Positions 5,401-47,900 of a stretch of 64,000 nucleotides of DNA are shown here, piece after piece. The stretch comes from Brachypterus glaber (lineage: Eukaryota; Arthropoda; Insecta; Coleoptera; Kateretidae). The first letter of the stretch is position 1; each line of letters opens with the position of its first letter. The position numbers and the translations under genes are program-made. The stretch covers positions 32,453,026-32,517,025 of the forward strand of contig OY294048.1 in assembly GCA_958510825.1 (NCBI GenBank), read 5' to 3'. The notes beneath the pieces are model-generated. The model saw nothing but the letters and a program-made list of their open reading frames with translations. It had not been told where the DNA came from and did not search any database.

Positions 5401-7004
5401 TTCTGAGACTCTTCATCTAAACAAAATTGCATATAGGCTCTTGATAAATCGATTTTGCTAAACTCTTCTCCCCCTGCAAGTTTGGGAAAGAGGTCTTGAA
5501 TGAGAGGTAACTGGTAGTTAAAATCCTCCAGATTCTCATTTAATGCTTTATAATCTCCACAAATCCTAATGGTATTATTCGCTTTTGGGACAATAACTAA
5601 AGCTGAGGCATTTTTACTGAAGTTTATAGGTACAATAACTCCTTCGGCTTCCAAACGATCTAACTCATCGTCCACCATTTTAACGTAGGCTAATGGAACT
5701 TGACGTGATTTTGCAAAGACAGGTTTCACATTTGGTTTCCTATCCAAACAGATCGTTGAGTACCTAAAACAACCAAGTTTTGTGCTAAATACCTCACTAA
5801 ATTCTTCAAATAATTTACTAATTTGGGTTGAATCTGCTTCAATTTGATTAAGCATAGTGAATTTTATTTTAAAATTGTTCAACCAATCCTGGCCAACAAT
5901 GTCGGTCACAGAATTTTCAACTATATAAAATTTTTGCGATTTAGTAACCCCGTTATAAGTTAAATTAATTACGATAAAACCTAAACTAGTTGATTTTGCA
6001 TTATTAAAACTCTTAAAAATAAGATTTTCTCTAGTTAATTTAAAATTACTAAAATATTTATCATATGTTTTACTAGAAATTACGGATACTTTGGCTCCTG
6101 AGTCCGCAAGAAATTGAACTTTAATGCCTTCTATTTGCAAATTTACCTTAAAATCGCTATTAATAGCTTCAAAACTACATATATTTACCTCAGAATCTAT
6201 GTCAACTGCATTGACATGTTTGTGTTTACACATTCGTTCTAAGTGGTTATTTTGACAAAAGCGGCACTTCCAGTTGTAAAACTTGCACTTTACTTGTCCG
6301 TGGTTATATCCACATATCCTGCAACTCGCATTTTCCCGATTTTCCTTTGGTTTCCTTGAATTTTTCGTAAATTTATGTCGCACGCCCATGTTGTTTCTCG
6401 AGCTGTCAAAATTTCTAAACGAAGTCGATGCCTTCTGCGCCGATGCGGGTCGACTTCCGTGTGTCACTTTGAATATTTCGCGGGCATTTTCACATTTTAC
6501 GTTTTCTGCATTTTCCCTCGCCCTTGCAACTTCCAGTAGCTCCAAAATAGTCGCGGATTTCTTGAATTCACACAATCTATCTAAAATTGGGCCAGGTTTC
6601 ATTGCGCACATAAATTTATCGCGAATTATGTCGTCTAATTTTTCGTCGAATTCGCAATTCGCCGCAAAGGACTTTACCCTCGCGTACCACTGCACAGTGG
6701 TCTCGTTTTCCTGCGAAATGCTATAGAATTTTCGACGTTCTCGCCAAATACATGTTTTTGCACTAAATTGCCTCTGCATGGCTGACATAATTTCTTCGAA
6801 AGTGGCTTCATTGGGCTTTTTGGGAAATAACAAACTTTTTAAAAGTTTATAAGTGTCCGGTTTAACCGAACTTAAAATTACGGCTCGCTTAATATTGTCT
6901 TCTTTTATCGAATTTGACACAAAAAATTGCTCTAGCTGCTCATAATAAACCAAATACTCGTCTTGACTGGGGTCGAATTCCTTGAACCTGACGCCCGACG
7001 CCAT
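2409..7004 (-). CDS. Gag-Pol polyprotein of Ty3/gypsy-type retrotransposon
   Basis: A single 1,531-codon frame encodes Gag and Pol with no frameshift between them. In order: a retrotransposon Gag region (about residues 5-170); cysteine/histidine clusters near 225-265 (CRICGYNHG, CRFCQNNHLERMCKH); a retropepsin with active-site LADSGA (about 300); reverse transcriptase with GDYKALN, KIDLSRAYMQF and catalytic FVDD (about 480-620); RNase H beginning LSTDAS; an HHCC zinc finger (HTAHYG...CEICLKH); and a DDE integrase (HIDHMQ, VSDNFSAF, then GSCENSVKNLKK). About 250 residues of Asn/Ser/Lys-rich tail follow, with seven-residue repeats. The apparent start at 7022 is a GTG, so I take the first ATG at 7004. 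All catalytic motifs look intact. The single-ORF gag-pol resembles the mag lineage, but that placement is tentative. Confidence 0.92.
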   Translation of the reverse strand: MASGVRFKEFDPSQDEYLVYYEQLEQFFVSNSIKEDNIKRAVILSSVKPDTYKLLKSLLFPKKPNEATFEEIMSAMQRQFSAKTCIWRERRKFYSISQENETTVQWYARVKSFAANCEFDEKLDDIIRDKFMCAMKPGPILDRLCEFKKSATILELLEVARARENAENVKCENAREIFKVTHGSRPASAQKASTSFRNFDSSRNNMGVRHKFTKNSRKPKENRENASCRICGYNHGQVKCKFYNWKCRFCQNNHLERMCKHKHVNAVDIDSEVNICSFEAINSDFKVNLQIEGIKVQFLADSGAKVSVISSKTYDKYFSNFKLTRENLIFKSFNNAKSTSLGFIVINLTYNGVTKSQKFYIVENSVTDIVGQDWLNNFKIKFTMLNQIEADSTQISKLFEEFSEVFSTKLGCFRYSTICLDRKPNVKPVFAKSRQVPLAYVKMVDDELDRLEAEGVIVPINFSKNASALVIVPKANNTIRICGDYKALNENLEDFNYQLPLIQDLFPKLAGGEEFSKIDLSRAYMQFCLDEESQKLLVWNSHRGLYKVTRMMYGIKPAAGIFQKNLDMLFKGMEGVAVFVDDICVTGRDREEHLKNLRSVLGKLQDAGLVVNKEKTSFFQPRVKFLGHYISRDGLSKTEDKVKAIADAKEPSNVSELKSFIGMVTYYARFIPKLAEILRPMYDLLKNNTKFIWSNACNVAFIKIKQLIVEDISLTHFDNKLPIILSTDASMDSVGGVLMHKMENGVEKVIACVSRSLSVSEKKYSVIHKEALAVYFAVRKFEGMLLGNYFNLRVDHQPLLALFGNKKGIPTLHANRLVRWSIYLSGFNFDIQYIRGCTNIMADYLSRSIRDEQKALRAQEEEEESGTYINFTEVCPDWPIDNKRVQIETRKDGELKKVKEWIEKETWPEAKKVKNDLKAYIFRKNEMRIEKGIVMFGQRVVIPRVLRSSLLEELHTAHYGVVKSKAVSRGLMYWPNIDRDIAEMSKSCEICLKHKDNPPKTITPWPSPKSVFERVHIDHMQLKDQYFLVITDVYSKWLECYPVKNTSAAQTIEKLYDCFARFGIPSCLVSDNFSAFVGEEMEKFLKSNGIKHLTSPMYHPMSNGSCENSVKNLKKRLKCMLDDPKYKGMSISILISRALLSYRTMPHCTTSEAPDVKMFGRKVRTRLTQISEFEQKNGEGDYEEEEAKRKSFKIKETVMVKDYRTRNEEKWVPAVIERKMGRSLYLCRTDENLLWKRSCNQIIARLEQGKRQILRRQATQPKQVEFSGRSVSIRNNISDFLQFPSVSCTNTRENVQNDNSSQNDNQNDISQQQIDANDTQNASNYLENQGDFDKSGSSGCENLNLRENDDILCKNDDILCKNDDIVSKNDEILCKNVVNVNKNDKFRLNCNPDKTKNENSTKGKTSAILHKKNLNKNKEKVILQKKTDLETLRDQNSSNFGECAKSRNQNTNEKSDYHHFDVNNDNVILHKEGNCVSNCVSNCVSNVKSCIVSENLKINSNSGSEKVLDNKRPKRDYKLPSRLKNYVLDFD

Positions 7005-7069
7005 GATGGATTCACAATACACGGGAAATTTTTTTTCGAAATTAAGGAAATAAAGTACTCACTTTTTGT

Positions 7070-32100: not shown

Positions 32101-35100
32101 TTTATTTTAAATAAAAACGTTAAAAGTTCGTAAATGTATATACCTGTAATTGTTAAAAAGTTATTGTTCTTGAAATGATTTCTGCAGGATTCGTTATATC
32201 TTAATTCTAAAATAGTACGAACCGCGCGTTTTTGTATTTTGAAAACATGCTCTACCTATGAGCTTTGTCCCCAAAAGATAATGCCATACTTAAGGACAAC
32301 TAAACCTAGAAATTTGGTGCTATTTGCTGTTTTCAAAGTCAAACTTTCATATGGCATCACCTCAGGGTTTTAAAAGTATACCGTGAGGTTTTAAACACTA
32401 AAACTTGGATTTTATCCTTATTCAGAAGCAGTTTATTTTTAACAGTGTAAAATATTATCAGCGCAAGTCTGGAGCAAACTAACCACATCTTGGTAACTAT
32501 AATTTAGATCCAGAATTGGACTAATAATATCATTCATGAAAATGATGAAAAGTATAGGGCCGATAACGCCTCCTTGGGCTATACCTAGGTTTACAAAGAT
32601 AGGATCTGACATACAAAATCTACCATCTTTATCAACTTTTTGAACTCAGTTCTTTAGCCAATCCTTGATCCACTGCAGCGCATTCCCCCTAACACCATAC
32701 CTTTCAAGCTTTTCCAAAAATATATAGTAGTCTATGCTGTCATAGGCCTTAGATAGGTCCAAAAACAAAGCTACGATATATCCTAAGTTTTCGAAGCCCA
32801 AAAGGACCTTATGTATGAAGTCGTGCATCGCAGTGTAGAACGATTTTTTATGTACCCATGTTGAAAATCGATAAAGAGGGGATTTATCTGGAAAAAATTA
32901 ATTAAAAACTATTCTACGAGCCATAGCGGTCTCAAATACCTTTGAAAAACCCGATAGCAAGATTATCGGCCTATAATTTTCAATTTGACACGGGTTACCC
33001 CTTTTAATGAGTGGTTTTGTCAGGGCAGCTTTTAAGGTTTCAGGAAATATTCCATACACTAAGGAGTTAGTAAGGACAGAAATTTTAATTTTAAACAAAA
33101 TTATAAAAATATTAATTTATTATTCCATCAATCTATTTTCTAATCATCGTACAGAGTGATATTGGTAGACTGACAGTTTCGGGCTACTGGCCCTCTTCAG
33201 TACCAAGAGTCAACTCTGCACGCTGATTAAGAAAACGTTTTTAGACTTTACTCGCAAAAGGAATATAGCCATTAGATTGATGTAGACTTGTGCGCCATCT
33301 ATTTCTAGACAACTACTCATACCTCTCCTAATCTCTTGGTACTGAAGAGGGCCAGTAGCCCGAAACTGTCAGTCTACCAATATCACTCTGTACGATGATT
33401 AGAAAATAGATTGATGGAATAATAAATTAATATTTTTATAATTTTGTTTAAAATTAAAATTTCTGTCCTTACTAATTTTACGTCTAACCACCCGTTAGTG
33501 GTACTATGTGCTTGAGACACACAAGTCTTCAACTTGCTACCATTCAAAGTCTCCAGATTAGGAGAGGTATGAGTAGTTGTCTACATCTAGAAATAGATGG
33601 CGCACAAGTCTACATCAATCTAATGGCTATATTCCTTTTGCGAGTAAAGTCTAAAAACGTTTTCTTAATCAGCGTGCAGAGTTGACTCTTGGTACTGAAG
33701 AGGGCCAGTAGCCCGAAACTGTCAGTCTACCAATATCACTCTGTACGATGATTAGAAAATAGATTGATGGAATAATAAACTAAGGAGTTGTTCACAATAA
33801 ATGCTAACGGTTCGCATATTTCAGGTGCGCAGGTCTTAATAATACTTACAGGTATCTCATCAAGGCTACTCCACTTATTTTTTAGATTTCTTATAATATC
33901 ATAAATTTCAGTACTCAAGACCAGACTAATAAACATTAAATTTGGATTGTTTGTGAGATCACAATCAAAGTCAACAGTAGGCCATGGATGAAATAAAAAA
34001 AACTGCAAAACCGAGTAACGTCTAACTGCAAAACCGCGTAACGTCTAACTGCAAAACCGCCTATCTACTGAAAGTAGCAAAACTGAGATTTTGTACAAGT
34101 ATAATCTATTCATCAAATGGCGTATATTGAGATATGTTTTGCAAGAAATAATGAATATAAACGGCTTAAAATGATAAAATTAATTACCATATTTATTTGA
34201 AAACTGCGTAAATGCGCATCTAAAAGTTGACATCACTTTGACATAAGTATAACTTTTTAATTTTCTAAATTAAATTCTCAACAGTGGAATGGAAAAATCT
34301 ACAAATTTATAGAAAACAGGAGTTAAAATTCTATATTAGGCATAGAAATATTTGATAGCTACAGCCAATTTGCCATAATTTTTAAGGACTTAACCTAGGT
34401 TATTCAATAAGCTATTAAAATAATTTTTATTATAAATAACAAATTTATAAAAAGGGTCGTTTAATATTTAGTTAAACTATTATAATAACAATTAACTAGA
34501 TTAATCCTATAGGTAATTATCATTAAATATCTAAAATTTTGTAAAAAATTAATTTAAAGACTTATATATATTTTTTTTAAATTTATATTTGATTAAAATA
34601 GAGTACCTATTTAAAAAATAGTACACTGTATGTTGTATTAAACTGTCTAAAATATAATAATTATACAAACATCCTGATTTATCCATCAATAGCTAAATTA
34701 ATTAGTTTTTTTCTAGCATGTAAAATTGTGTTTTTATACCTTACGCGGCTTTGCAGTTAGACGTAACCGGGTTTTGCAGTTGGAGGTTAAGCGGTATTGC
34801 AGTATCATGGACAAAATATCACGATTCACTCACCGCAGTAATGAGAAGAATCCAGCGCGTGCGCACTGATTTTCTTATTTTTGTTTTGACGTATGCCAAA
34901 AATTATTTTAAGGTTAGGTATCATTCTTTTGCAGAATTTTACAAAAATATCTACTTTTTTCTTTGCGAACTAACAGTTTTTTTTTAATTGGCTAAAAGTA
35001 TTCGGTTTTAATAGTATTTTCGTAAAAAAATTGCGGAATATTCATTAATAAACATTTGATTCTTAAAATATATCGCCTTGTAAATTCTGAAATATCGTAT

Positions 35101-38100
35101 CTGAAAAATGCCTCCCATTAAAAAAAACATCAAACCAGCAAACTACCAAACCAAACCATTATTAACGTAAACCAACGCCTCCCATTAAAAAAAAAACACC
35201 AAACCAGCAAACTACCAAACCAAACCATTGGTAACGTAAACCAACGCTTCCCATAAAAAAAAACACCAAACCAGCAAACTACCAAACCAAACCATTGTTA
35301 ACGTAAACCAACGCCCCCATTAAAAAAATCAAACAGAAAGTCTTGAGTATTTTGCTATATTATATTATATTCTAACAAAAAAACAGGATTTTCCGCACCT
35401 AATTATATTCAAGTAAATTTTAGTAATAAAACCAGAAATCAGTGCAAAAATATAGTTCATTTTTGTGGACCTGATGCGCACCGTAACCCCACTCAAATTA
35501 AACTATTTCATAAAACTACAACTGCCTAAACGGAAGCCACTTTTGACAACAACAAAAATAAGCAAACCAGTGCGCATGTGCTAGATTCTACTCATTACTG
35601 CGGTGAGCGAATAGTGAAATATCAACCGTTCCGCTTTTAGGATTCCGGTCGTGACTTATTTAGTTGAATAAAAGGTATGCAGGGATACGAACCGTACTAG
35701 TTTATACAAAATCGATGTAAATTACATCATCTGTAATTTGTTTGGTCTTTAAGAGACAGGCTCAGTGCCTATGGCTCATTTATCTAAAATTTGAATTAAT
35801 TTGAATGGATAATTGGGGGAGTGAGTCTCTGCTCACTGATGCTGATTTGCATCTGTCATGAATTTTTGGGTGTTGCGACGAGGAAGGTGGGAGGGGGATT
35901 TGGGGGGATGGAGTAGGGATTGGAGGGAGGTGTGGGGGGAGTGAAACTAGTTCACTGGTGCTGGAGATGCACCTGTCCTGTGTTTGTGGGCACCATTACT
36001 GGTTGAGGACATTTTTGATCTTTTTGTAAGTGTAGTGGATTTCATGATCGTAATCTAGAAAATTTGAGATGAGGGGGTTTGGGTGGTCTAAATTGTCTTG
36101 TATAAAAGACTTACTGTATCGGATGATTTCCGTTTTTAGGAGGGGCATGTCGAGATCTCTGTGAATTTGGTTGTTCCGCATGAACCAGGGGGCATCAATG
36201 CATATTCTGAGTACCTTGTTTTGAAAGGCCTGAAGTTTGGCTGAGAGCGTTTTTTTAAGGGTGATTTTGTTCCAGGCTGGTGCTCCATAGAGGAGTACTG
36301 GCTTTAGAGTTTGGTTGTAAAGTAGAAGTTTGTTTTTAATTGATAGGGGGCTCTTTCTCCCTATAAGAGGGTAGAGTTTGGAGAGGCGGGTGTTTGCTAT
36401 TTGGAGGGTATTTTGGACGTGCTGATCCCACGTAAGATTTTTGGATAGGGTAATGCCAAGGTATTTGGCATGGTTTTCCCAGTTAATGGCTTGGCCGTTT
36501 ATCTGAATGGGTTGGGGTGGGCCTCTTCTAATCCTAGAGATTAGAATGCCTTTTGTTTTGTTAGTGTTTACTTTAATTTTCCATTTGGAGAACCATTTTA
36601 TTAGGGCATCCATTTGGCGCTGGAGGGCGGTATGGATGCGCTGGGGGTTTTTAGCTTTTGCTAGTATGCCGGTATCGTCGGCGAACAGGGCTATTTCAGT
36701 AGCCTGTGTTTTTGGGATATCTGCGGTGAAGAGATTGTACAGAAGGGGGGATAGTGGGGAGCCTTGTGGAACGCCAGCTTCGATGGGGCGAGTGCTGGAC
36801 TTAGAGTCGCCTATTTTGATTTGAAAGTCTCTGCCTTCGAGGAAGGAGGCTATGAGCTTGGTGATGCCTAGGGGGAGGCCGAGAAGATGAAGTTTGACTA
36901 CAAGACCTATGTGCCAGACTTTATCAAAGGCTTTTGCGATGTCCAGGAGGATCAGTCCCGCGGCTTCGCGCCTATTTAATCCATCTGTAATTGAGTCTAC
37001 CAGGCGAGCCACCTGGTGGACTGTGGAGTGTCTGCTTCGGAAACCGAATTGCTCGTTTGGTAGGAGATTGAGCTCTTCAACTAAAGTTTGGAGTCTGGTT
37101 AAGATGACTTTCTCGGCTATTTTGCCCAGGGAGGATAGGAGGCTTATGGGGCGATAACTTTGGGGAAAGGTCGGATTTTGACCGGGTTTTTTGATTACTA
37201 TTACATCTGCGTTTTTCCAGGACTTTGGAAAATGTCGCAGTCTGAGCATTGCGTTAATAATGTTAACGATGGCCATGATGGTTTTGCGGGGGAGAATTTT
37301 TAAGATTTTGTTCGGTATTTGGTCTGGGCCGGGGGCTTTTCTTTTTGGGAGATTTTTGATGATACTTTTGATTTCCTCGGGGGTTGTGGGGGTGATAATG
37401 TCGTTTTCGACTTGGGTTGTGATTCTATCGTAGGTGTGCTTTATTTCTCTTTCGTGCGTGAGTTGCTCGTAGTCAGAGTCGTCAGAATCGGGTTCAGAGT
37501 CGGTTTCTGGTACGGGGTCAGGAATTGGGGGGTTTGGTTTGAATTGATCTTGCATTGTGTCAGCAAATGCTTCGGCTTTTTCGGGGGTGGAGTAGACGAC
37601 TCCTCTTAGGCCGTGTATTGGGGGGAAGCCTCTTTGGTGATCGAGGGATAGGGTTTTGGCCATTTTCCAAAGGGATCTATCCTGGGGGTTTAGGGATTTT
37701 AGTTTTCCCTCCCATCGGGAGTTTGCTAGGGTGTTTAGTCGGTCTTTGACTTCCTGAGTAAGTCTGTTCGCTTGGCGTTTAATGTGAGGGTCTTGAAGAG
37801 TGCGCGCTCTACGTAGAAGGCGGTTTTTCTCTCTGATTAAGTCTTTGAGATCTCGAGGAAGGTCTTGCGGGTTTTTAATTTCTACATTTTTAGTTAGTTT
37901 GGCTTCATCCATTGCGGATTTAATGACTTGGGTGAGATTGACTACGGCGGTATCTAGTTCTTGGACGGTGTTTATAGGACTGATTGTGGTTTTGGTTTCT
38001 AGGAGTTGGGATATGAATGCGAAATCGTATACTGTCTTTTTAGTGTGGTTTGCGGTTGGTATGCCTCCTGCCGTGATAATGATTGGGAGGTGATCTGAGC

Positions 38101-40722
38101 TTAATTCGTGTTTTAATTCTATATTAATGTTTAGCGTCGTGTTTTTATACAAAACGATGTCAAGGACGTCGGGAAGGCCGAGGCCATAATGGGTTGGGGA
38201 ATCAGGTGCGGTAACCATTATATGGTTACGTTGTAAAATATCGTTAAGCCTACGGCCATTGGCCGTAGTTGTTCTAGAGTGCCAAAGGGCATGTTTGCAA
38301 TTCAAGTCTCCGGCTAGGATTGTTGGGTGGTTGTCATTGAAGTAGCCTTCGATGTCGGCGGGTCTAATTTCCCTATTGGGGGGTTTATAAAAGGACACGA
38401 TCCTGAATTTGGAATTGTCGTTCATATTGACGAAGATGGAGGTAGTTACGACTTGATCGCTTTGTGTGGGGGGGGCGTGTAAAAGATCGTGGGACAAATG
38501 TTTTTTAATATAAATTGCTGTGCCTCCTTTACGATCCAGGAGTCTATCGTTACGGTAACAGGAATAGTTGGGTATGGTACCCCTATGATGTGGTTTAAGA
38601 CCAGTCTCTTGGACGAGGGCTATATCGATTTGATTGTCGTGAAGAAATTCTATGAACTCCGGTTTTTTGGTTGAGAGGACATCAGCGTTCCAGGTGACGA
38701 TTTTAAGGGCTCTGGGTTTCACTTGTCTATACATTTTGGGGTCCTAGGCTGGGCAATTGGAGGGTACTGAAAGCCTGCATGAAGCTGGCGAATTCTTGCA
38801 TGAATGAGTGTATTTTTGAAATTTGGGTTTGATCAAAAATATTTGGGGGGTTGGCGCTGGGGCCTGGGGCCGCTTTGGGTTGTTGGGGGGTGGCTTTGGC
38901 TGCCTTTTGGGCATAGGAGGTGCCAGGGGTGAATTTTTGGGTTGGGGGGACCTTTAAGCCGGTTGGGAGGTTGTTAGAAGGGTGTTTTGGGCATTTGTGA
39001 TAGTTGGCTGTGTGAGGGCCAAGGCAGTTTGCGCATTTAGCGTCTGTGTTGCGGGGTTTGTCACATGTTTTTGTGTGATGATCTTTTGCGCATTTGACGC
39101 ATTTGGCTGTAGCTCTGCAATTGGCCTGGGAGTGACCGAATAGCTGGCATTTGTGGCATTGCCGGAATTTTGGCTTATAGGTCTGGCTTTCGACCTTGAT
39201 TACTAGGTGTAGAAGCCTAGTTTCTTTGAATATAGGGTGTTGATGTCCGGTCACCTTGGGAAGGATGACTAGGACTAGTGGCATGGGGGTTTTGTCTTTG
39301 GTACGCGTCATTCTGGCGACTGACGTGGGGGTGTACCCTCGCTCGATGAGAGCGGCTGCGACGTCTTTTACGGCTATTTGAGTGGGGATTCCCCGGATTA
39401 CGGCGTGAATCGCCTTGTCTTCCGGGAGGGTGAAGCTGTGATACGGAATTTTCTCCGTATCAAGGTGTTTCGTGACTTTGCGGAAGTCGTCACTAGTCTG
39501 AGTGCGAATTTGAACACCGTCGGTGGTGTTCTTCGCGTGTAAAATATTAATTCTTTGCGAATTAAAATAGCTCGATAGGGCTAGCCACTTTTCAGGGGCT
39601 CGGATTATGATAGGGGGGATTTTTGGGGCTTTTTGGGCTTCTTGGTCGGGGGTTGGGGGTTTGGCGGCGGGTTGGTTTATTAAACCGGAAGGTTGGTTTG
39701 TTAAGCCGGAAGGGACCGGGGCGGGGGGGGGTGGCCCTGATCCGGAGGGTTTAGGGGCCGTGTCGGAAGCGGCCCCTTTTTGGGGGATTTTTTGGCTCTT
39801 AGGCGGAATTGTGTTTAGCTCCGTTTCGGAGCCGGAACTTTTTGGGCGCTTTTTTTGTTTTCTGCGTTTTCGCGGGGATAGTGTGGGGGATCTGGGGGAT
39901 TCGCTCCCTGAGGCGAATTCCACTCCGGACATGTCTGATTCGGAGGGTTCAGGGGCATCGGAAAATGCCGGGTCCTGGCTTGGTTGGTTTTTTAGGAGGG
40001 TATCTATTTGGACAGTGAGGTGGGCAATTTCCTGTCGGAGGCCGCTGATCGTGTCATTGGCGAATTTTATTTGGGCTAGAAGACTATCGGTTTGTGTTTT
40101 GTGATTTTCTGCCTGGACTTTTAATTGTTCTTGAAGGTTTGCAATTATTGACTGTAGGGAAGAATTTGCCATGGTGGCGTCGTAGTGGGGCTTATCGGGG
40201 GAGTTTGGATATGACATCTCGGAGTGCGTAAGTTGAGAATTACGGGGGCCTGAAAAGGCCCCGGGCGGCGGGGGGAGGTGTAGTGTTAAGCACTAATTGT
40301 TAGTATTGGGGTCTTGGGAACCTTAAACACACCAAACCGCCAGCCTCAGCGGTTTGTAGGAATTGGCTTAAGTCCACAGTGTGAAAAGGGCTGCAGCACT
40401 TAGCAAGCAAGCTTACAAGTGAGCAAATGTTAGTTCGAATATATTTATAATAAACCAATCTTACTCTATGGAAATCTGCTGGGCGACGTCTGACCTCTTC
40501 ACTGTCACTCACTCGACCGTAATGTGTCATGTGTAATGTAAATTACATATGGGTTATGTAGTCTTTATTAAAAAATCATGTATATGTTATTCTATTGTAG
40601 AAATGGAACGGCAACGTGGCTACGAAGAGGATGCGACTCGGGAGGACTACTCGATGTGGGTACCGCCGGAGAACCAAACAGGAGATGGCAGAACCAGTTT
40701 GAACGATAAACTGGGATATTGA
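8218..40722 (+). CDS. Kanadaptin (SLC4A1AP / NADAP orthologue), 11 coding exons
   Basis: Coding exons are 8218-8434, 8762-8990, 12903-13041, 19090-19270, 20129-20293, 22061-22264, 22678-22832, 26265-26741, 28301-28943, 31191-31334 and 40601-40722. They total 2,676 nt (891 residues), with all phases consistent and GT/AG at every junction. An FHA phosphopeptide-binding domain spans about residues 120-225 (FGR at 132, SRYH at 148, [10 protein letters not shown] at 174). A kanadaptin-specific dsRNA-binding-like region ([20 protein letters not shown], encoded by exon 6) follows, then the family motif [21 protein letters not shown] and the conserved C-terminus (WVPPE...[13 protein letters not shown]). 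Vertebrate kanadaptin is a mainly nuclear FHA protein of about 800 residues; its biochemical role is not settled. The extra length here is mostly exon 9, which I cannot match to the vertebrate protein. Introns are heavily invaded by transposons, intron 10 alone spanning 9.3 kb. Confidence 0.93.
8435..8761 (+). other. Kanadaptin intron 1
   Basis: Phase-1 intron, GTAAAT...TTTTTAAG. At about 8566-8660 it holds an interspersed repeat beginning GGGAACGTTCAAGTGTTACA, also seen at about 48468 and 56908. Confidence 0.8.
8762..8990 (+). CDS. Kanadaptin exon 2 (FHA N-terminal half)
   Basis: Encodes [11 protein letters not shown], then [20 protein letters not shown], the FHA strands carrying the phosphopeptide-contacting Arg of FGR. 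Phase 1 in, phase 2 out; donor GTAAGA. Confidence 0.93.
9000..9880. repeat. Diverged repeat-rich intron 2 segment
   Basis: Between about 9020 and 9860 the words GTGTAAA/TTTACAC and GATGTAAAAAT recur in both orientations at both ends, suggesting an old foldback or TIR element of about 0.85 kb. I see no ORF and cannot assign a family. Confidence 0.4.
9924..10150. repeat. Interspersed repeat (ATTCAGAAATAGGGT family), split by a LINE
   Basis: Starts GGGTTATTCAGAAATAGGGT and matches, inverted, 42225-42420, and also 47285-47400. Similarity stops at about 10150, where the 3' tail of a LINE begins, so this repeat was the insertion target. Confidence 0.6.
10152..12016 (-). mobile_element. 5'-truncated non-LTR retrotransposon (LINE)
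   Basis: The minus-strand copy ends at low coordinates in a TTATTATAATTAAAA-type tail after a 3' UTR of about 130 bp, and begins within the region upstream of RT. The 3' terminal motif (AAT)n with TTTATTTCAAAA, read on the plus strand, is shared with the decayed LINE ending at about 31740, so both belong to related families. Confidence 0.85.
10284..12016 (-). CDS. LINE reverse transcriptase, partial ORF
   Basis: An open frame of about 577 codons without a natural start. It begins in the linker upstream of RT ([13 protein letters not shown] near 11930), followed by RT blocks with [61 protein letters not shown] and the catalytic LYADDTLI, then the thumb and C-terminal region ending at a stop at 10284. 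The endonuclease domain is missing through 5' truncation. The motifs fit the CR1/L2/jockey group, and the clade is not resolved. The frame is free of stops, so the insertion is relatively young, but it lacks a promoter and an endonuclease. Confidence 0.9.
12060..12370. repeat. Interspersed foldback-family repeat
   Basis: Contains CCAGGGGTGTGCGAAATG and AAAAAGGTACTCTTGTTGTAA, matching the 47719-48462 foldback element. It is the right-hand part of the repeat interrupted by the LINE. Confidence 0.55.
12376..12760. repeat. Repeat shared with 60240-60950
   Basis: Contains the words GACTAAAAAAAGGTCCTCACC and, further right, GCTTAGAGCTTATTTCGCCA and GGGGGTGCTCA. All three occur in the same order near 60300-60930, marking one dispersed repeat family. 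No ORF is recognised. Confidence 0.6.
12903..13041 (+). CDS. Kanadaptin exon 3 (FHA core)
   Basis: Completes SRYH across the junction and encodes [19 protein letters not shown], the FHA signature including the Asn turn. Acceptor TTTTATTTTAG, donor GTAAGT; phase 2 in, phase 0 out. Confidence 0.95.
13195..13918. mobile_element. Foldback element with long inverted repeats, copy 2
   Basis: An element of about 724 bp whose ends are ACAGAGCGGTCCAAAAGTCA and its complement TGACTTTTGGACCGCACTGT. The inverted arms extend beyond 150 bp, and the G-rich/C-rich inner motifs also pair. Flanking TATA on both sides is compatible with a TA target. It is non-coding and likely a mariner-type non-autonomous element. 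Confidence 0.8.
13950..15150. mobile_element. pogo-type DNA transposon deletion derivative
   Basis: Terminal inverted repeats CAGTGGACTCGGCTAATTGT and its near-perfect complement at 15127-15150 (23 of 24 bases match) are flanked by TA on each side (13948-13949, 15151-15152). The word ATTGTGACA recurs inside both ends. The interior keeps a transposase N-terminal fragment on the minus strand, so this is a shortened copy of an autonomous pogo/Tigger-like element. Confidence 0.8.
14432..14663 (-). pseudogene. pogo-like transposase N-terminal fragment (HTH_psq)
   Basis: From an ATG at 14663 a lysine-rich leader leads, after an apparent one-base expansion in a run of nine A, into [36 protein letters not shown] and KPGRT. 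This is the Psq/CENP-B-type helix-turn-helix of pogo transposases. A stop follows at 14432, and the second DNA-binding domain and DDE domain are absent. The frame shift and truncation mark it as dead. Confidence 0.7.
15153..15604. other. Intron 3 segment, no gene seen
   Basis: AT-rich on the left. A moderately GC-rich patch (about 15540-15590, GGGCCGCG) has no recognisable ORF or RNA. Confidence 0.4.
15605..15677. repeat. Direct plus inverted 27-bp repeat
   Basis: GTTAGATGTAATATGCCAGT occurs twice with period 27, followed by the inverted form (ACTGGCATATTACAT), so the stretch can form a perfect hairpin. Confidence 0.75.
15680..15807 (-). pseudogene. Partial duplicate of the nested coiled-coil gene
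   Basis: This 128-bp stretch matches 16615-16746, inside the minus-strand ORF at 16403-16999, at most positions, with small deletions and substitutions. It is truncated on both sides and has no independent ORF. Confidence 0.8.
15808..16402. other. Intron 3 segment downstream of nested gene
   Basis: Holds a GC-rich patch with self-complementary CCGGGCCC / GGGCCCGAGGGG (about 15887-15935), a GGTACC-containing palindrome (about 16213-16260) related to 58860-58945, and a poly(A) signal for the nested gene (AATAAA on the minus strand at 16347-16342). Confidence 0.5.
16403..16999 (-). CDS. Nested intronless coiled-coil protein, unidentified
   Basis: A 198-codon ORF on the strand opposite kanadaptin, entirely inside its intron 3. 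The first ATG is at 16999 ([12 protein letters not shown]); the longer frame to 17029 would need a GTG start. The product is highly charged and mostly helical in character. A coiled-coil core runs from about [14 protein letters not shown] to [13 protein letters not shown], with heptad-like spacing. No signal peptide or membrane segment is visible. An AATAAA lies about 55 bp past the stop. The single exon and intronic position fit a retrocopy or a nested gene. A diverged partial duplicate sits 0.6 kb away. I do not recognise the family, and kinetochore or centrosomal coiled-coil proteins are only a guess. Confidence 0.55.
   Translation of the reverse strand: MNSEEIITEKEQKNSKIDEKLHVHFSEGNCSNECEKLLDLFASHSAPNLEPIEKIRRIFEKTEEMREFAKVKNKQIENEFADLKRRLSNSSEYLQKIKNNIQNLKFTYQKNLIEMHRSLDPTVCLTDPTKMKSKEEMKKSMEEIRQKIDHLQMKVKSQKEKQDDVSKDYRSAFERVLSGLQDIESGKYSSQKNLFDES
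17113..17885. mobile_element. Nested foldback element (three copies of one arm)
   Basis: Ends ATTTATCCAATA and TATTGGATAAAT bound inverted arms of about 190 bp (with AACCCCCGCGTGG and its complement CCACGCGGGGGTT). A further direct copy of the arm lies at 17440-17610, each followed by a CAGGTTAATTTTC / GGGCAATATC block. A related fragment is at 49559-49670. No ORF. Confidence 0.75.
18419..18443 (+). repeat. Left half of exact 25-bp inverted repeat around exon 4
   Basis: Begins TAAGACCTAGATCTAGTGTC and is the exact reverse complement of 19776-19800. The pair flanks kanadaptin exon 4. Confidence 0.85.
18531..18620. repeat. 19-bp minisatellite, about 5 copies
   Basis: Unit TTACCGGGCATTATGAAAA repeats at 18531, 18550, 18569 and 18588 with a partial fifth copy at 18607. 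The copies are identical, indicating recent expansion or homogenisation. Confidence 0.95.
19090..19270 (+). CDS. Kanadaptin exon 4
   Basis: Encodes [20 protein letters not shown], the end of the FHA domain with the family-specific GPEED motif, then [20 protein letters not shown] leading into a charged helix. Phase 0 in, phase 1 out; donor GTGAGT. Confidence 0.94.
19776..19800 (-). repeat. Right half of exact 25-bp inverted repeat around exon 4
   Basis: Begins CTAGGGACACTAGATCTAGG and complements 18419-18443 perfectly. Confidence 0.85.
20085..20114. repeat. (ATT)n microsatellite
   Basis: About nine ATT units preceded by GGAATAAATGC. The form resembles a short LINE/SINE 3' tail and sits 14 bp before the exon 5 acceptor. 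Confidence 0.85.
20129..20293 (+). CDS. Kanadaptin exon 5
   Basis: Encodes [13 protein letters not shown] and [16 protein letters not shown], a conserved block in the family. Phase 1 in and out; donor GTATTT is weaker than the others. Confidence 0.94.
20464..21045. repeat. Two tandem copies of a dispersed repeat
   Basis: Copy 1 starts near 20464 and copy 2 near 20746. Both share TAGTTAGTG, CCACCCGTT, CAGCTGATTTTACATAT, TCAAATTGACAAATTAAT and TTAGGT-TAGGTCGTA. A third, inverted copy lies at 45040-45310 in shade intron 2. Confidence 0.75.
21111..22015. mobile_element. TIR element with internal minisatellite, family member A
   Basis: Ends CCGGTAAACTTACCGAACAC (21119) and the near-complement TGTCCGGTAAGTTCACCG (about 21996). 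The interior has repeated ACCAACGTTAACGTAA units (21391-21625) and a TTTTCCGCACCTAATTATAT block shared with 35372-35460. No ORF. Confidence 0.55.
22061..22264 (+). CDS. Kanadaptin exon 6 (dsRNA-binding-like region)
   Basis: Encodes [20 protein letters not shown] and [20 protein letters not shown], a double-stranded-RNA-binding-like fold known in kanadaptins. Phase 1 in and out; donor GTGAGT. Confidence 0.95.
22265..22677 (+). other. Kanadaptin intron 6
   Basis: A 413-bp AT-rich intron with nothing recognisable. Confidence 0.85.
22678..22832 (+). CDS. Kanadaptin exon 7
   Basis: Encodes [20 protein letters not shown] followed by [13 protein letters not shown], the most conserved acidic signature of the family, ending ETYESL. 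Phase 1 in, phase 0 out. Confidence 0.95.
23112..24469. mobile_element. Large foldback element with TIRs of about 340 bp
   Basis: The left arm (23112-23452) includes CGAGTCGTGACGTCAAAA, GCATAGCCGGGTACAA and TGCCTGGCCAATC. The right arm (24122-24469) is its reverse complement with moderate divergence. The central 670 bp has another inverted pair (TTTCCGTATCCGCG / GTCGCATACGGAAAC). No transposase ORF, so it is non-autonomous. Confidence 0.8.
24873..26188. mobile_element. One or two TIR elements sharing CGTCGGCTTACAAGTAAA ends
   Basis: The terminal motif occurs at 24873 (forward), about 25091-25122 (inverted), 25123 (forward) and 26165-26188 (inverted). The simplest reading is a 250-bp and a 1,066-bp element of one family lying end to end. 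No ORF. Confidence 0.65.
26265..26741 (+). CDS. Kanadaptin exon 8
   Basis: Encodes a coiled coil ([20 protein letters not shown] onward, including [20 protein letters not shown]), the motif [13 protein letters not shown] and an acidic stretch [11 protein letters not shown]. It aligns by order and motifs with the C-terminal half of vertebrate kanadaptin. Phase 0 in and out; donor GTTAGT. Confidence 0.92.
26742..28300 (+). other. Kanadaptin intron 8
   Basis: Contains an inverted pair around 26813-26945 (CTGACAAAATTTAC / GTAAATTTTGTCAG) and a 200-bp cluster of self-complementary TGGATATCCA-type words (27005-27205). The rest is AT-rich with nothing recognised. Confidence 0.7.
28301..28943 (+). 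CDS. Kanadaptin exon 9, lineage-specific 214-codon exon
   Basis: An uninterrupted 643-bp exon that fits the gene's phase on both sides. It starts with a Pro/Asn/Gln-rich acidic part ([17 protein letters not shown]), then a helical lysine-rich module ([57 protein letters not shown]), and ends in a Ser/Asp tail. I see no counterpart in vertebrate kanadaptin. It may be an insect-specific domain or a captured coding segment. Confidence 0.85.
28944..31190 (+). other. Kanadaptin intron 9
   Basis: A 146-bp tandem duplication (29075 and 29221, AACCGAATCTGGCCTCAGAA) lies in the left third. Multiple TGTCATAAAAT words are scattered over 30130-30720, and an AACAAAACAA-type simple stretch lies at about 30958-30990. 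No gene recognised. Confidence 0.7.
31191..31334 (+). CDS. Kanadaptin exon 10
   Basis: Encodes [20 protein letters not shown] and [20 protein letters not shown], an acidic-to-basic stretch. Acceptor AATAATTTCAG, donor GTATTT; phase 1 in and out. Confidence 0.88.
33162..33206 (-). ncRNA. Hammerhead ribozyme, copy A (inverted)
   Basis: On the minus strand the order is TTGGTA (stem I), CTGAAGA (core), GGGC-loop-GCCC (stem II), GAA, ACT-GTC-AGT (stem III), C (cleavage position) and TACCAA (stem I). All conserved core bases are present, including the A15.1-U16.1 pair. Flanks GTGCAGAGT and ACTCTGTAC extend stem I beyond an internal loop. Confidence 0.85.
33336..33380 (+). ncRNA. Hammerhead ribozyme, copy B
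   Basis: Identical to copies A and C in the 45-nt core. Its upstream flank comes from the inverted arm, so the outer stem I helix is missing. Predicted cleavage is after C at 33374. Confidence 0.82.
33689..33733 (+). ncRNA. Hammerhead ribozyme, copy C
   Basis: Same 45-nt core, with the outer stem I helix (GTGCAGAGT upstream, ACTCTGTAC downstream) intact. Predicted cleavage is after C at 33727, 353 nt from that of copy B. Confidence 0.86.
34001..34805. mobile_element. Element ending in inverted 23-bp tandem repeats
   Basis: The left end has about 2.6 copies of a unit starting AACTGCAAAACCG and ending GTAACGTCT. The right end (34741-34800) has the same units inverted. The 680-bp interior is AT-rich without an ORF. 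It abuts the 5' limit of the recognisable LINE sequence, so it may have inserted there. Confidence 0.65.
34824..35620. mobile_element. TIR element with internal minisatellite, family member B
   Basis: TIRs of about 65 bp (CTCACCGCAGTAATGAGAAG on the left; CTACTCATTACTGCGGTGAG on the right) enclose about four units of roughly 63 bp with ACCAAACCATT and AACGTAAACCAACGC (35105-35330), and a block shared with 21650-21730. Confidence 0.75.
35996..38734 (-). CDS. Jockey-type LINE ORF2: endonuclease and reverse transcriptase
   Basis: 912 codons, uninterrupted. The N-terminal APE-type endonuclease has [38 protein letters not shown] and SSDHLPIII. The RT follows: [72 protein letters not shown] and catalytic LFADDTGI, then the C-terminal [10 protein letters not shown] region ending at TAA. 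There is no RNase H domain, as expected for jockey. Start and stop overlap the end of ORF1 by eight bases (ATGTATAG). All catalytic motifs look intact. Confidence 0.95.
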   Translation of the reverse strand: MYRQVKPRALKIVTWNADVLSTKKPEFIEFLHDNQIDIALVQETGLKPHHRGTIPNYSCYRNDRLLDRKGGTAIYIKKHLSHDLLHAPPTQSDQVVTTSIFVNMNDNSKFRIVSFYKPPNREIRPADIEGYFNDNHPTILAGDLNCKHALWHSRTTTANGRRLNDILQRNHIMVTAPDSPTHYGLGLPDVLDIVLYKNTTLNINIELKHELSSDHLPIIITAGGIPTANHTKKTVYDFAFISQLLETKTTISPINTVQELDTAVVNLTQVIKSAMDEAKLTKNVEIKNPQDLPRDLKDLIREKNRLLRRARTLQDPHIKRQANRLTQEVKDRLNTLANSRWEGKLKSLNPQDRSLWKMAKTLSLDHQRGFPPIHGLRGVVYSTPEKAEAFADTMQDQFKPNPPIPDPVPETDSEPDSDDSDYEQLTHEREIKHTYDRITTQVENDIITPTTPEEIKSIIKNLPKRKAPGPDQIPNKILKILPRKTIMAIVNIINAMLRLRHFPKSWKNADVIVIKKPGQNPTFPQSYRPISLLSSLGKIAEKVILTRLQTLVEELNLLPNEQFGFRSRHSTVHQVARLVDSITDGLNRREAAGLILLDIAKAFDKVWHIGLVVKLHLLGLPLGITKLIASFLEGRDFQIKIGDSKSSTRPIEAGVPQGSPLSPLLYNLFTADIPKTQATEIALFADDTGILAKAKNPQRIHTALQRQMDALIKWFSKWKIKVNTNKTKGILISRIRRGPPQPIQINGQAINWENHAKYLGITLSKNLTWDQHVQNTLQIANTRLSKLYPLIGRKSPLSIKNKLLLYNQTLKPVLLYGAPAWNKITLKKTLSAKLQAFQNKVLRICIDAPWFMRNNQIHRDLDMPLLKTEIIRYSKSFIQDNLDHPNPLISNFLDYDHEIHYTYKKIKNVLNQ
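38727..40217 (-). CDS. Jockey-type LINE ORF1: Gag-like zinc-knuckle protein
   Basis: 496 codons. An N-terminal coiled coil (about residues 15-80), a basic Ser/Arg/Lys stretch ([12 protein letters not shown] near 115), a Pro-rich linker, a pre-zinc-knuckle domain ([20 protein letters not shown]) and three CCHC knuckles ([42 protein letters not shown]) follow in order. Their spacings 2-4-4, 2-3-4 and 2-3-6 match the jockey/I group pattern. The protein packages element RNA in the known members. The Ala/Pro-rich C-terminal tail runs into the overlap with ORF2. Confidence 0.93.
   Translation of the reverse strand: MSYPNSPDKPHYDATMANSSLQSIIANLQEQLKVQAENHKTQTDSLLAQIKFANDTISGLRQEIAHLTVQIDTLLKNQPSQDPAFSDAPEPSESDMSGVEFASGSESPRSPTLSPRKRRKQKKRPKSSGSETELNTIPPKSQKIPQKGAASDTAPKPSGSGPPPPAPVPSGLTNQPSGLINQPAAKPPTPDQEAQKAPKIPPIIIRAPEKWLALSSYFNSQRINILHAKNTTDGVQIRTQTSDDFRKVTKHLDTEKIPYHSFTLPEDKAIHAVIRGIPTQIAVKDVAAALIERGYTPTSVARMTRTKDKTPMPLVLVILPKVTGHQHPIFKETRLLHLVIKVESQTYKPKFRQCHKCQLFGHSQANCRATAKCVKCAKDHHTKTCDKPRNTDAKCANCLGPHTANYHKCPKHPSNNLPTGLKVPPTQKFTPGTSYAQKAAKATPQQPKAAPGPSANPPNIFDQTQISKIHSFMQEFASFMQAFSTLQLPSLGPQNV
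40601..40722 (+). CDS. Kanadaptin exon 11 (C-terminus)
   Basis: Encodes [20 protein letters not shown] then NDKLGY and TGA at 40720-40722, the diagnostic C-terminus of kanadaptins. It begins 52 bp after the right target duplication of the jockey insertion, so that insertion lies very close to the acceptor. Confidence 0.95.
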
Positions 40723-43867: not shown

Positions 43868-44910
43868 CTAAAGTCGGTCTTTAAAATTCATATTCATAGG
43901 TGATTTTGCCGATAGTAAAAACTCAAATTGTAATTCTAAAGGCGTGTCCACTTGAATTTCAAACTTCCTAATAGTTGAAAGAACTAATATTGGCAAGACT
44001 TGTTCAATAAATCGTTTGCCAGGGCATATTCTACGCCCTATTCCAAAAGGACAAACTAAATAAGTAGCGTTGCTAAAAGTTTGTTGCTTATGATCATTCA
44101 ACCATCTCTCAGGATTGAATTCAGTTGCGTTTTTGAAATTTTTTTCTTCTCTGCTCGCTATTCCGGTATGGCAGATTACCACACTGCCAGATTTTATTTT
44201 ATATCCAGATAAATTCAAGGGTTCTTCTGTTATTCTTGCTAAACAATTTGCAGTAGGATATAACCTGAATGTTTCGTTTATACAAGCTTTTAAATAATTG
44301 TTACTGTGATCCTCGAGTATTTTTTCCTGTGCATTTGGATGCTTTGCAATTAAATACAATAAAAATATCAAGCTGTTTTTTAACGTGTGTATTCCGGCAG
44401 CTATAAAGTCCACGATAGCTGCAGTTTTTTCTCTGTCATCTACTTGTGCTTTTAACACGGATTGAAATAAAGCACTTTCTTTGGTCGAATCATCTGCAGT
44501 TTGAATGAGTTCCAATGCTATTTTATAAATGATCTCCTCACTTTCTGCTAATTTTTTGTACGCAGCAGTAGGAAATAATTTCCAGAACGGTAATCCGTAG
44601 TATGTATCCCTCGATGCCAAAAAATGTTCTTTCACGGCTTCGGCCAAATGCTTTGCGATTTCTGATTCTTCTTCTTCGGGTAATAGAAAGCCCATTCTTC
44701 TGCCCAGTACCAAGTCGCAAGTTACTTCCAGTCCCAATCTAGATACTAATTGGTGCAAGTCTGCCACTTGTCCGCTTTTTTTTCTTTGTTGTTTTAGTAA
44801 GTTACACCAATCGTCGGCTATTATATCCACTTGCGGTAAGAAGCTGGATATCGTCTTAGGACTTGTGAGATCTGTCGTTAAGGATGTTCGTAAATAGTGC
44901 CATGTTTTAC
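43868..44910 (-). CDS. shd: Shade exon 3 (catalytic and haem-binding part)
   Basis: Starts after TTTGTTTTTTCAG, completes the Gly of NEQG, continues KTWHYLRTSLTTDLTSPKT and runs unbroken for 347 codons to the stop. Carries the I-helix, ETFR, PERW and the haem Cys loop. Confidence 0.95.
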
Positions 44911-47900
44911 CTGAAAAAACAAAGACTAGACTGCACAAATAAACCAACGACATAAAGGTATCATATACGGAGCAACAGAATTTTGTTTACTAACGCAAGA
45001 CTTTTCTCGGGCAAAGTGTTTCGACATATCTTTCTTCTTACCTAGGATTGCTCGAAAGTAAAATAGTATATTACGCACTTAGTACGCGAACCTAGTTCGA
45101 AGTGCACGGAAATAGGTTTGCGTTTTCCACGACCTAACACCTAAACATCCAAAAAACGAAAAAATTTTCTTATTAATTTGTCAATTTGACGTTTTTTGGT
45201 TGACGTTTACTTATTTTCTGACAGTAGATATATAAAATCACCTGATTGTTACTTTCCGACCGCTGTAATGGCAACGGGTGGAACATGAGCACTAATTACT
45301 AATTAGGTCGTAGAAAAAAATACACAGGCACACAAAAAAACAAAAAGGTCAGTTTCTGGGGTCGAGATAAACATTTCTATATGTTTGGGGTCGCTGAATT
45401 CGAATCTAGGGTTGGTTTGACTCGTTCTGGTCGCATTTCGTTGCTAACCTTAAAAAAGTGATGATAGTTGAAACACGTTTCATCACCTTTTTGAGATTAG
45501 GTACAAAATGCCACCTGACTGAGTTAAACCAACCCCAGATTCGGATTCAGCTACCCCAAAAACGTATAGAAATGTTTGTCTCGACCCAAGAAACAGACCT
45601 TTTTTTTCGTGTAGTACCTGTTCACAGGCACACCAAAAAAAAAGGTCAGACGAGACGAATATTTCTATACGTTTTTGGGGCCGCTGAATATGAATCTGGG
45701 GTTGGTTTAACTCGTTCAGGTCGCATTTCGTTGCTAACCTCAAAAAAGTAATGAAAGTTGAAACACGTTTCATCACTTTTTTGAGGTTAGCAACAAAATG
45801 CGACCTGACCGAGTCAAAACAACCCCAGATTCGGATTCATGAATCGCTGCAGCGACCCCAAAAACGTATATAAATGTTTGTCTCGACCCCAGAAACAGAC
45901 ATTTTTAAATTTTTGTGTGCCTGTGTTATTAGCATATGCGAAAAACTACAATAATATTTTAAATGATATTAATAACCTTAACAATTTACTGTTAACGTTT
46001 TTTGTTTTTCATAAAATATAAGGTTACATAGATAAGAATTTTTCCATTGTTTCAGCAAATACAGCAAATACAAATGTACTTAGTTGTATTAAAACACTAA
46101 TTACACTAGTAGAAATTTAACTTTAGAATATCGGTTTTCTACCCTTATAAAATATGTGCAAATGTGCTTTTTAACGTTAGAATCTAACGTTAGTTACTAC
46201 CGTTAATCTAATCAAAATTTAATGTTAGATTTTTAATTTAGAAATACGTTGAAAGTACGTTTAAATCTAACTTTTGGCCAACTAGGAAAATTTTACCTGT
46301 TATATTGGTAGTCCCAATAAAATGGTACCTACAGAAAAATTTATTCATATTAATAATACTTAAGTAATTATTATATTTTAGCAATCTTTTTAGGTGGCCC
46401 TTAATATTTTTCGTGTAATATGCTGTTACTTATATTATTTATTTATAGATTTAAAAATTAAAAATATTTTTGTACTTCTGGTTTTACTTTTGAGGGATGA
46501 TATTCTCTTAAAATATATTATAGAAATTATAAACAAAATAAAATTATATTCTTATTAATTAAATATTAATAAATAATAATAAATATTAATTTTAATCAAG
46601 GAGAATAACAAAAATCTTTTAGTGTTTTTATTTTATTTTTAAAAAAATTGCAAACTTTTCTCGGATTATTATCAAAAATATATGGACGTAGCTGTATAAT
46701 AAGTCCTTTTTACTACATCTTACACAATAATGGAAAGTCGAAAAGTTAGATTAAGGTTAGATTTTAGTTAATTTCTAACGTTAGCATAAGGTTGGGATTT
46801 AGTCAGCAACTAACGTTAGATTTATGTATTTTATAACGTTTTTGTCAAATTTTAGTTTTAAACATTAAATTTATATATTTTATAATGTTTTTGTTTAACT
46901 TTAGATGTTAGAATAAATATAAATATTAAGATTGATGTTTTCCTACAAGTGTAATTAATTTATCATATTTGCAACTAGTATACAAAGATGAAAACAAATT
47001 TACTAATAAAACAAACAGTTAAGAATAAAAAATATCTGGTTTTATTTTACATCTTTAATAGGATAGTACAAATTCTAAAACAATTATGTCGACTATTATA
47101 GTCAATAATAGAGTTAAAAGAGAGATTTTAATAAATAGCTAAATTAGCTTTTACATACAACTCATGCTAACGTCATACTCTTCGCATTCTCGTGACTAGA
47201 AAAGTATTAAACGATAGTTTACAAAATTCCAAAATCATCAAAAACCCGCCTTGAAACAAAAAACTATATACATAATATGTATATAGGGTGATTCAGAAAT
47301 AGGGTACAAAATTTTAAGAATTGATTCTAGATTCAAAAATATGAAAAAATGTTTCTATAAAGGTTAGTCTGGTAAGGGAGCTACGACCCTTCTAAGGGTA
47401 CATCTGAAAAGTAGTTTTTATTTAATATTCAACTTCAAAATGTAGTAGAAGTAAAAAAAAGAATCGCGCAGACGGCAGCTGGCGCGTGGTTTCATTGGTT
47501 AAAACACTCGAATGTTGCTAGAGTAGGGATGTAGAAAATTAAACAGGTCAGTATGTGAGCACTTGCAAAGAAGCGTACAATGCATTGCAATGGACCGTTA
47601 TATAGAAATATTTTGTTTTGAATTCTACCCTGTCACTAAATGCGTGCGTTTGTTTACGCTTACTGCATCTTGAAGTTAAATATACTATATGAACTACAGT
47701 AACTATTTTGCACATGCCTTATCATTGATAAAGGTTATCCTTTTATGTAATTTTTATTTGGTAATTTTAACCAGGGACGTGCAAAATGGGGGGGCGATGT
47801 AAGTGTTTTGCCCCAAACATTTTTATCCATAGATTTCTTGACATTTTCTTAATAAAATAGGATTCTTTAGTTAAAAATGGGTACATGAAAAAGGTACTCT

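What the first reader, a model, noticed from the sequence alone, without database searches (positions are those of the whole stretch)
33162..33733. Three identical hammerhead ribozyme motifs in one 710-bp insertion
At 33162-33206 (-), 33336-33380 (+) and 33689-33733 (+) the same 45 nt contain every conserved hammerhead element. These are CUGANGA (CTGAAGA), stem II GGGC/GCCC, GAA, the A15.1-U16.1 pair closing a 3-bp stem III, cleavable C17, and a 6-bp stem I TTGGTA/TACCAA. Complete core plus three helices is very unlikely by chance. Hammerheads with very short stem III are known from Penelope-like elements and animal retrozymes.
Basis: partly seen in the sequence, partly recalled or inferred. 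Interest (0 to 1): 0.88.

Follow-up and report, generated by a model that had tools for sequence, protein, structure and literature searches.

The report
Head-to-head hammerhead retrozyme in a beetle
This is one copy of a tiny non-coding mobile element, whose hammerhead motif occurs thousands of times in what is probably a beetle genome; its RNA is predicted to cut itself, and it was likely pasted in from both ends of the broken target DNA by the enzyme of a Penelope-like element living in the same genome.

Summary
The three identical 45-nt hammerhead motifs are real and not a chance match (0 hits in 100 Markov-model windows). They lie in a ~710-bp insertion with an 11-bp target duplication, built of 353-nt non-coding units in two opposed arms, 3' ends outward. 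Rfam's type I model does not hit; the best match is a sub-threshold hammerhead model (RAGATH-1, 21.4 of 56.3 bits). The genome holds 5,850 such cores.

The main result is how copies are inserted. Of 66 sampled loci, 43 are head-to-head with one end at site A (about u94) and the other at site B (about u139); 3 are A/A, none B/B or tail-to-tail. Penelope-like elements (PLEs) of the same genome end alike: one end 89-100 nt, the other 119-127 nt past their hammerhead-like core, in 5 of 5 scorable copies from two families. The window element gives 85 and 132. Most likely this is an animal retrozyme mobilised by a PLE that primes on both target strands. Self-cleavage, RNA circles and PLE action are untested.

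The parts
33058..33068 (.). left target site duplication ACTAAGGAGTT
   Evidence: joining the flanks with one copy gives a continuous frame of a non-LTR reverse transcriptase across the site
33069..33332 (-). left arm, inverted partial unit (u223 to u353, then u1 to u141 read on the minus strand); outer end is site B
33148..33222 (-). complete hammerhead with outer stem I (core 33162-33206); predicted cleavage after 33168 on the minus strand
33333..33779 (+). right arm, 1.27 units (u1-u353, then u1-u94); outer end is site A
33336..33380 (+). middle hammerhead core; 5' strand of the outer stem I missing; predicted cleavage after 33374
33333..33685 (+). one full 353-nt unit, the u1-u353 reference used here
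   Evidence: start-to-start spacing 353; 354 in 19 of 22 same-strand neighbours elsewhere
33375..33727 (+). 353-nt RNA predicted to be released by the two plus-strand hammerheads
   Evidence: inference from the two predicted cleavage sites
33673..33747 (+). complete hammerhead with outer stem I (core 33689-33733); predicted cleavage after 33727
33779..33789 (.). right target site duplication ACTAAGGAGTT

Best explanation
This is a copy of a non-coding retrozyme of a probable beetle, a 353-nt repeat bearing a predicted type I hammerhead ribozyme, that was likely inserted by the reverse transcriptase of a resident Penelope-like element priming on both cut strands of the target. Steps: (1) tandem units are transcribed and the hammerheads cut the RNA into 353-nt pieces that may circularise (inferred from known animal retrozymes). 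(2) A PLE protein (RT plus GIY-YIG endonuclease) recognises the RNA and cuts the two target strands some 10-17 bp apart (the duplications are shown; the protein is inferred). (3) One target 3' end primes at site A, about 85 nt past the hammerhead core start, and the other at site B, about 130 nt past it (end positions shown; priming inferred). (4) Both cDNAs are extended, often for more than one unit, on a circular or multimeric template, and are joined at a variable point, usually with a few nt of microhomology (structure shown; process inferred). The product is a head-to-head insertion with one A end and one B end.
For: Motif and family: three motifs against 0 in 100 Markov windows; 2,953 + 2,897 cores genome-wide against 0 + 0 for the reversed control pattern; same-strand spacing of 354 nt in 19 of 22 neighbours. 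Insertion: of 66 loci, 43 head-to-head A/B, 3 A/A, 4 B plus an unclassified end, 10 one-strand, 6 running off the stretch, 0 B/B, 0 tail-to-tail; 11 of 11 opposite-strand neighbours in a positional list are head-to-head; duplications of 10 bp or more in 31 of 40 A/B loci against 0 of 61 mismatched flank pairs; junctions not palindromic, 2 of 43 within 15 nt against 3.8 expected. Arms exceed one unit in 37 of 40 A/B loci. PLE link: PLEs with RT and GIY-YIG domains in the genome; in 5 of 5 PLE copies with both arms scorable (two families) one end is 89-100 and the other 119-127 nt past the hammerhead-like core, the window element 85 and 132. The purified Anolis PLE protein cuts and extends both strands and starts at two adjacent internal RNA sites (PMC11167929).
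Against: No Rfam hit at threshold. A competing fold is more stable in the energy model, -33.8 against -25.7 kcal/mol for the native hammerhead. No compensatory changes, and the hammerhead is not significantly less variable than the rest of the unit (Mann-Whitney p 0.19 and 0.26). Inner arm ends are not enriched at the cleavage site: 3 of 40 A arms and 2 of 40 B arms within 8 nt. The PLEs compared share no clear sequence with the unit, and their cores are hammerhead-like only (relaxed pattern). In the Anolis system hammerhead mutants do not stop insertion in vitro. 23 of 66 loci are not A/B head-to-head as fetched.
Confidence: 0.75

Rival explanations
1. The element is a cut-down PLE derivative: its unit is the pLTR of a PLE family (lost or not sampled) that dropped its ORF, rather than a retrozyme of separate origin.
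For: The head-to-head arms, duplication length and one-sided tail match PLE copies in this genome, and rotifer solo pLTR structures are known to be mobilised in trans (PMC3846280 passages).
Against: None of the PLE bodies in L042-L063 carries the unit; strong matches in L053 and L054 are separate retrozyme copies. Its hammerhead has a canonical core, closed stem III and outer stem I, unlike the PLE cores seen. Only 22 loci were compared of 419 GIY-YIG candidates, so this is not excluded.
Confidence: 0.25
2. The repeat is mobile but its hammerhead is inactive in vivo; the folded RNA persists because a PLE reverse transcriptase recognises it, not because it cuts itself.
For: In the Anolis PLE, hammerhead mutants do not affect insertion in vitro and cleavage needs the protein (PMC11167929). 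No enrichment of inner arm ends at the cleavage site. A competing fold is more stable in the model.
Against: 154 of 159 complete copies in the fetched loci keep CTGANGA and GAAAC, though the copies are young and this is no test of selection. Published invertebrate retrozyme hammerheads with canonical type I form self-cleave (PMC7229834, sections read).
Confidence: 0.2
3. The head-to-head form comes from another process: self-priming of one cDNA (as proposed for rotifer PLEs) or twin priming by a LINE.
For: Self-priming was proposed for inverted rotifer PLEs (PMC3846280 Discussion); twin priming is known for L1 (PMC2837659, seen in the listing only). LINE-type elements are present in the window. 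L023 has a near-palindromic junction.
Against: Junctions are not palindromic in 41 of 43 A/B loci. Both outer ends are fixed and different, at the spacing seen in resident PLEs.
Confidence: 0.1

Closest known systems
Metazoan non-LTR retrozymes (PMC7229834; abstract, passages and sections 13, 14, 17 seen)
   Same: Short non-coding tandem repeats (about 170-400 nt) of low GC with type I hammerheads, many copies, larger target duplications than plant retrozymes; reported also from insects.
   Different: Those texts describe tandem repeats; the word 'inverted' does not occur in that paper. Here 43 of 66 loci are head-to-head with two fixed end sites. RNA circles and cleavage not tested here.
Penelope-like elements, e.g. 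PAc of Anolis (PMC11167929, main text read) and Adineta vaga Penelope (PMC3846280, passages and Discussion read)
   Same: Head-to-head arms, 8-18 bp duplications, a tail on one side, ends 85-132 nt past a hammerhead or hammerhead-like core; two adjacent RT start sites shown in vitro for PAc.
   Different: The element here has no ORF; its tail is about 45 nt against about 26-30 nt in the PLE copies measured here; its hammerhead core is canonical.
Plant LTR retrozymes (PMC4918200, seen only in the search listing with start of abstract)
   Same: Non-autonomous, hammerhead-bearing retroelements.
   Different: Type III hammerheads in LTRs and 4-bp duplications, as described in PMC7229834.
RAGATH-1 hammerhead (Rfam RF03152)
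   Same: Best Rfam match, hammerhead core aligned in register.
   Different: Score far below the gathering threshold; not a member by that test.

Membership tests
Metazoan non-LTR retrozyme | type I hammerhead with full core, three helices, open stem I | tested here: met
   structure scan and outer stem I; Rfam RF00163 not met
Metazoan non-LTR retrozyme | loop-loop tertiary contact between stems I and II | not testable with these tools
   an internal loop in stem I and a 5-nt loop II exist; contact not assessed
Metazoan non-LTR retrozyme | unit of about 170-400 nt in tandem, low GC, no ORF | tested here: met
   353 nt, 35.7% GC, longest stop-free stretch 65 aa; 354-nt spacing
Metazoan non-LTR retrozyme | many dispersed copies with target duplications | tested here: met
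   5,850 cores; duplications of at least 8 bp in 39 of 54 uncut loci of sets 1 and 2
Metazoan non-LTR retrozyme | self-cleavage and linear/circular RNA | not testable with these tools
   needs bench work or RNA-seq
Penelope-like element (autonomous) | ORF with RT and GIY-YIG domains | tested here: not met
   no long open frame in the unit
Penelope-like insertion structure (works like) | head-to-head arms with a tail on one side only and 8-18 bp duplications | tested here: met
   43 of 66 loci A/B, 3 A/A, 0 B/B; PLE copies of the same genome, 5 of 5 scorable
Penelope-like insertion structure (works like) | insertion by the PLE protein | not testable with these tools
   PLE genes are present; action on this RNA not tested
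Rfam Hammerhead_1 (RF00163) | covariance-model score at or above 34 bits | tested here: not met
   no match in the window; one match elsewhere in the genome

The most novel reading that the evidence does not exclude
Animal retrozymes are passengers of Penelope-like elements: the hammerhead fold places a PLE reverse-transcriptase dimer at two fixed start sites on a small circular RNA, both cut target strands prime at once, one at each site, and the two cDNAs are joined head to head. The same dual priming would explain the inverted pLTRs and one-sided tails of PLEs at large.
Probability: 0.5. Interest if true: 0.82.

Novelty: new variant of a known kind. Interest (0 to 1): 0.64.

Why it matters
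Which enzyme moves animal retrozymes is open: PMC7229834 and PMC7761336 name PLEs as candidates mainly from co-occurrence and shared hammerheads. Here the insertion ends themselves carry the PLE signature, at nearly the same spacing from the hammerhead as in resident PLEs. The one-A, one-B pattern also gives a sequence-level test of how PLEs make inverted copies, which PMC3846280 ascribed to self-priming. It turns a suggestion into a concrete two-component system, one PLE protein and one 353-nt RNA, that can be tested in a tube.

Tried and rejected
Rfam: no type I hit at gathering score or E up to 10 over 1,051 bases; a sub-threshold RAGATH-1 match appears only when the search is cut to 101 bases. 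Covariation and conservation of the hammerhead: no signal; the copies are young and the samples were mostly ranked by similarity. Similarity between the unit and PLE bodies: only AT-rich weak matches (and a 73% match in L045, E 5e-6, not followed up); strong hits in L053 and L054 are separate retrozyme copies. Run-off at the predicted cleavage site: not enriched. A cluster of A-arm inner ends at the hammerhead's 5' edge (10 of 40) comes mostly from the set ranked with a query that has its own junction there, so it is not used. Same-template test: arms of one locus share alleles more than different loci do, but L081 differs at 4 of 9 sites, so one shared RNA is not always the template. Of nine PLE loci with inverted arms, L061 and L063 gave no duplication and L059 only a low-complexity one; these three are left out of the end count, and L053 has a core on one arm only. 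The PLE core pattern was relaxed to CT(T)GANGA after seeing the L050 family. Exceptions: two loci (L033, L071) begin within 21 nt of the fetched edge and may be cut; in L087 the arms are 222 nt apart; some duplications, such as L007's A-run, are low complexity. Literature listings were capped (30 of 41, 20 of 86, 15 of 1,043, 20 of 679, 15 of 18,968, 3 of 3, 12 of 80), so absence from them is weak; two relevant papers are not held.

Full report
OBSERVATION. The same 45 nt occur at 33162-33206 (-), 33336-33380 (+) and 33689-33733 (+). A scan that asks for CTGANGA, GAA, an A15.1-U16.1 pair and three helices finds only these three in the window and none in 100 first-order Markov windows. The two outer motifs have, beyond an internal loop, a second stem I helix CGTGCAGAGT/ACTCTGTACG; the middle motif lacks its 5' strand because the inversion junction lies just upstream. 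Rfam's Hammerhead_1 does not match. With the search cut to 101 bases the best match of all families is the RAGATH-1 hammerhead, core in register but below threshold (21.4 of 56.3 bits, E 0.072).

ANATOMY. The insertion is 710-711 bp between 11-bp duplications ACTAAGGAGTT. It interrupts a non-LTR reverse-transcriptase sequence on the minus strand: joining the flanks with one duplication copy gives an open frame across the site, although that fragment has stops further on. It is built of a 353-nt unit, 35.7% GC, with no stop-free stretch over 65 aa. I number the unit from 33333 (u1): the hammerhead is u4-u48 and predicted cleavage follows u42. The minus arm ends outside at about u141, the plus arm (1.27 units) at u94. 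Both arms point outward.

THE FAMILY. The host genome is 648 Mb in 842 contigs. The best named match to the window's P450 is from the beetle Brassicogethes aeneus (72% identity), and the other high-ranking named matches are beetles too, so the host is probably a beetle. A 33-nt hammerhead pattern with up to 3 mismatches occurs 2,953 times forward and 2,897 times in reverse; the reversed control occurs 0 times on either strand. The first 100 places listed by position on one contig (perfect matches) form 67 clusters; same-strand neighbours are 354 nt apart in 19 of 22 cases and all 11 opposite-strand neighbours are head-to-head.

ENDS. I examined 66 loci: 40 from the list, ranked on the whole insertion; 20, ranked on 94 nt of one arm (those of its loci not already held); and the first 6 by position (fetched). 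With A as u88-128 and B as u133-152, 43 are head-to-head with one A and one B end, 3 are A/A, 4 have a B end and an unclassified end, 10 have one strand only (8 end at A, 1 at B, 1 at neither), 6 run off the fetched stretch, and none is B/B or tail-to-tail. By set the A/B count is 26 of 40, 14 of 20 and 3 of 6. With narrower ranges (A u90-106, B u133-150) 34 are A/B. Of 110 outer ends, 92 fall in the narrow ranges, which cover 35 of 353 positions; the ranges were drawn after seeing the data. Duplications of at least 10 bp are found in 31 of 40 A/B loci of the first two sets, against 0 of 61 pairings of flanks from different loci. One A/A locus (L038) has a further piece ending at u147 about 550 nt away.

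INNER JUNCTIONS. The arms meet at variable points, with 1-8 nt of overlap in 31 of 40 A/B loci, filler in 5, none in 1 and longer overlap in 3. Inner ends lie within 15 nt of each other in unit coordinates in 2 of 43 A/B loci, 3.8 being expected by chance, so the junctions are not generally palindromic. A arms exceed one unit in 28 of 40 loci, B arms in 14 of 40, and at least one arm in 37 of 40, up to 1,992 nt; so the template was circular or multimeric. At 12 diagnostic sites, tandem units of one arm agree in 0.98 (set 1) and 0.93 (set 2) of comparisons, opposite arms of one locus in 0.88 and 0.85, different loci in 0.80 and 0.62. Arms share an allele at every compared site in 26 of 35 loci; L081 differs at 4 of 9. 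So the two arms often, but not always, come from the same or closely related RNAs.

THE LIKELY PARTNER. The genome has PLEs: a 716-aa open frame in L050 matches RT (39.3 bits, cut-off 29.6) and GIY-YIG (25.8, cut-off 22.6), and L051-L053 carry GIY-YIG matches over cut-off. L054, L057 and L060 were found by GIY-YIG matches and not scanned further by Pfam; L054 and L057 align with L050, and L060 shares its core with L052. Nine of 14 fetched PLE loci have inverted arms that I checked for duplications. In the six with a clear duplication I measured from the start of the hammerhead-like core to the outer end: L051 91 and 119, L054 89 and 119, L057 89 and 119 (one family); L052 97 and 127, L060 100 and 126 (a second family); L053 131, with no core found on the other arm (third). 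Each of the five copies with both arms has one short and one long end. The window element gives 85 and 132. The purified Anolis PLE protein cuts and extends both target strands and starts reverse transcription at two adjacent internal sites, the stretch between them being the genomic tail; its hammerhead cut lies 26 bp past a start codon placed at the start of stem II (PMC11167929, main text). In the present unit stem II starts at u17 and the predicted cut follows u42, also 26 nt. Rotifer PLEs have an inverted pLTR, a tail at one end and 8-10 bp duplications (PMC3846280 passages).

MECHANISM. Shown by sequence: the repeat, its motif, the duplications, the A/B pattern, the head-to-head arms and the similar spacing in resident PLEs. 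Inferred: self-cleavage and circles (from PMC7229834), recognition by a PLE protein, and priming on both target strands at A and B. Self-priming on an antisense template, offered for rotifer PLEs whose inverted junctions hold palindromes (PMC3846280 Discussion), would predict palindromic junctions, which 41 of 43 loci here lack. Against my reading stand the missing Rfam hit, the more stable competing fold, the lack of covariation or measurable constraint, no enrichment of arm ends at the cleavage site, no sequence shared with the PLEs sampled, and the in vitro finding that hammerhead mutants do not stop PLE insertion.

KNOWN OR NEW. The element meets the sequence criteria of metazoan non-LTR retrozymes (PMC7229834, sections 13, 14, 17). 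That paper and PMC7761336 (passages) propose PLEs as movers. In the capped listings I saw no paper on head-to-head retrozymes or two-site ends of retrozymes; most subscription papers are not held. I call it a new variant of a known kind.

Noticed in passing
L043, L046, L047, L049, L052, L053, L058-L061 (PLE loci): Hammerhead-like cores near PLEs seem to carry one extra unpaired nucleotide between CTGANGA and stem II; read by eye.
   Followed up: no
L041 1501-1547 (G000:C10:30938340-30938386): The only RF00163 match found in the genome (45.8 bits, gathering 34), a different hammerhead from this family; surroundings not studied.
   Followed up: partly
34001-34069 and 34734-34803: Three 23-nt tandem repeats and an inverted, diverged counterpart about 680 nt away.
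   Followed up: no
2409-7022, 35996-40217, 43868-44953 (all minus strand): A retroelement polyprotein with RT, RNase H and integrase domains; a non-LTR element with endonuclease/RT and a PRE_C2HC ORF; an ecdysone 20-monooxygenase-like P450.
   Followed up: partly
L065 (G000:C12:35764100-35767500): A longer, more complex retrozyme array, not resolved by the segmentation.
   Followed up: no
unit u349-u10 (window 33333-33342): Inner ends of A arms cluster at the 5' edge of the hammerhead (10 of 40 within 8 nt of u353), mostly in the set biased by its query; could mark an RNA 5' end.
   Followed up: partly
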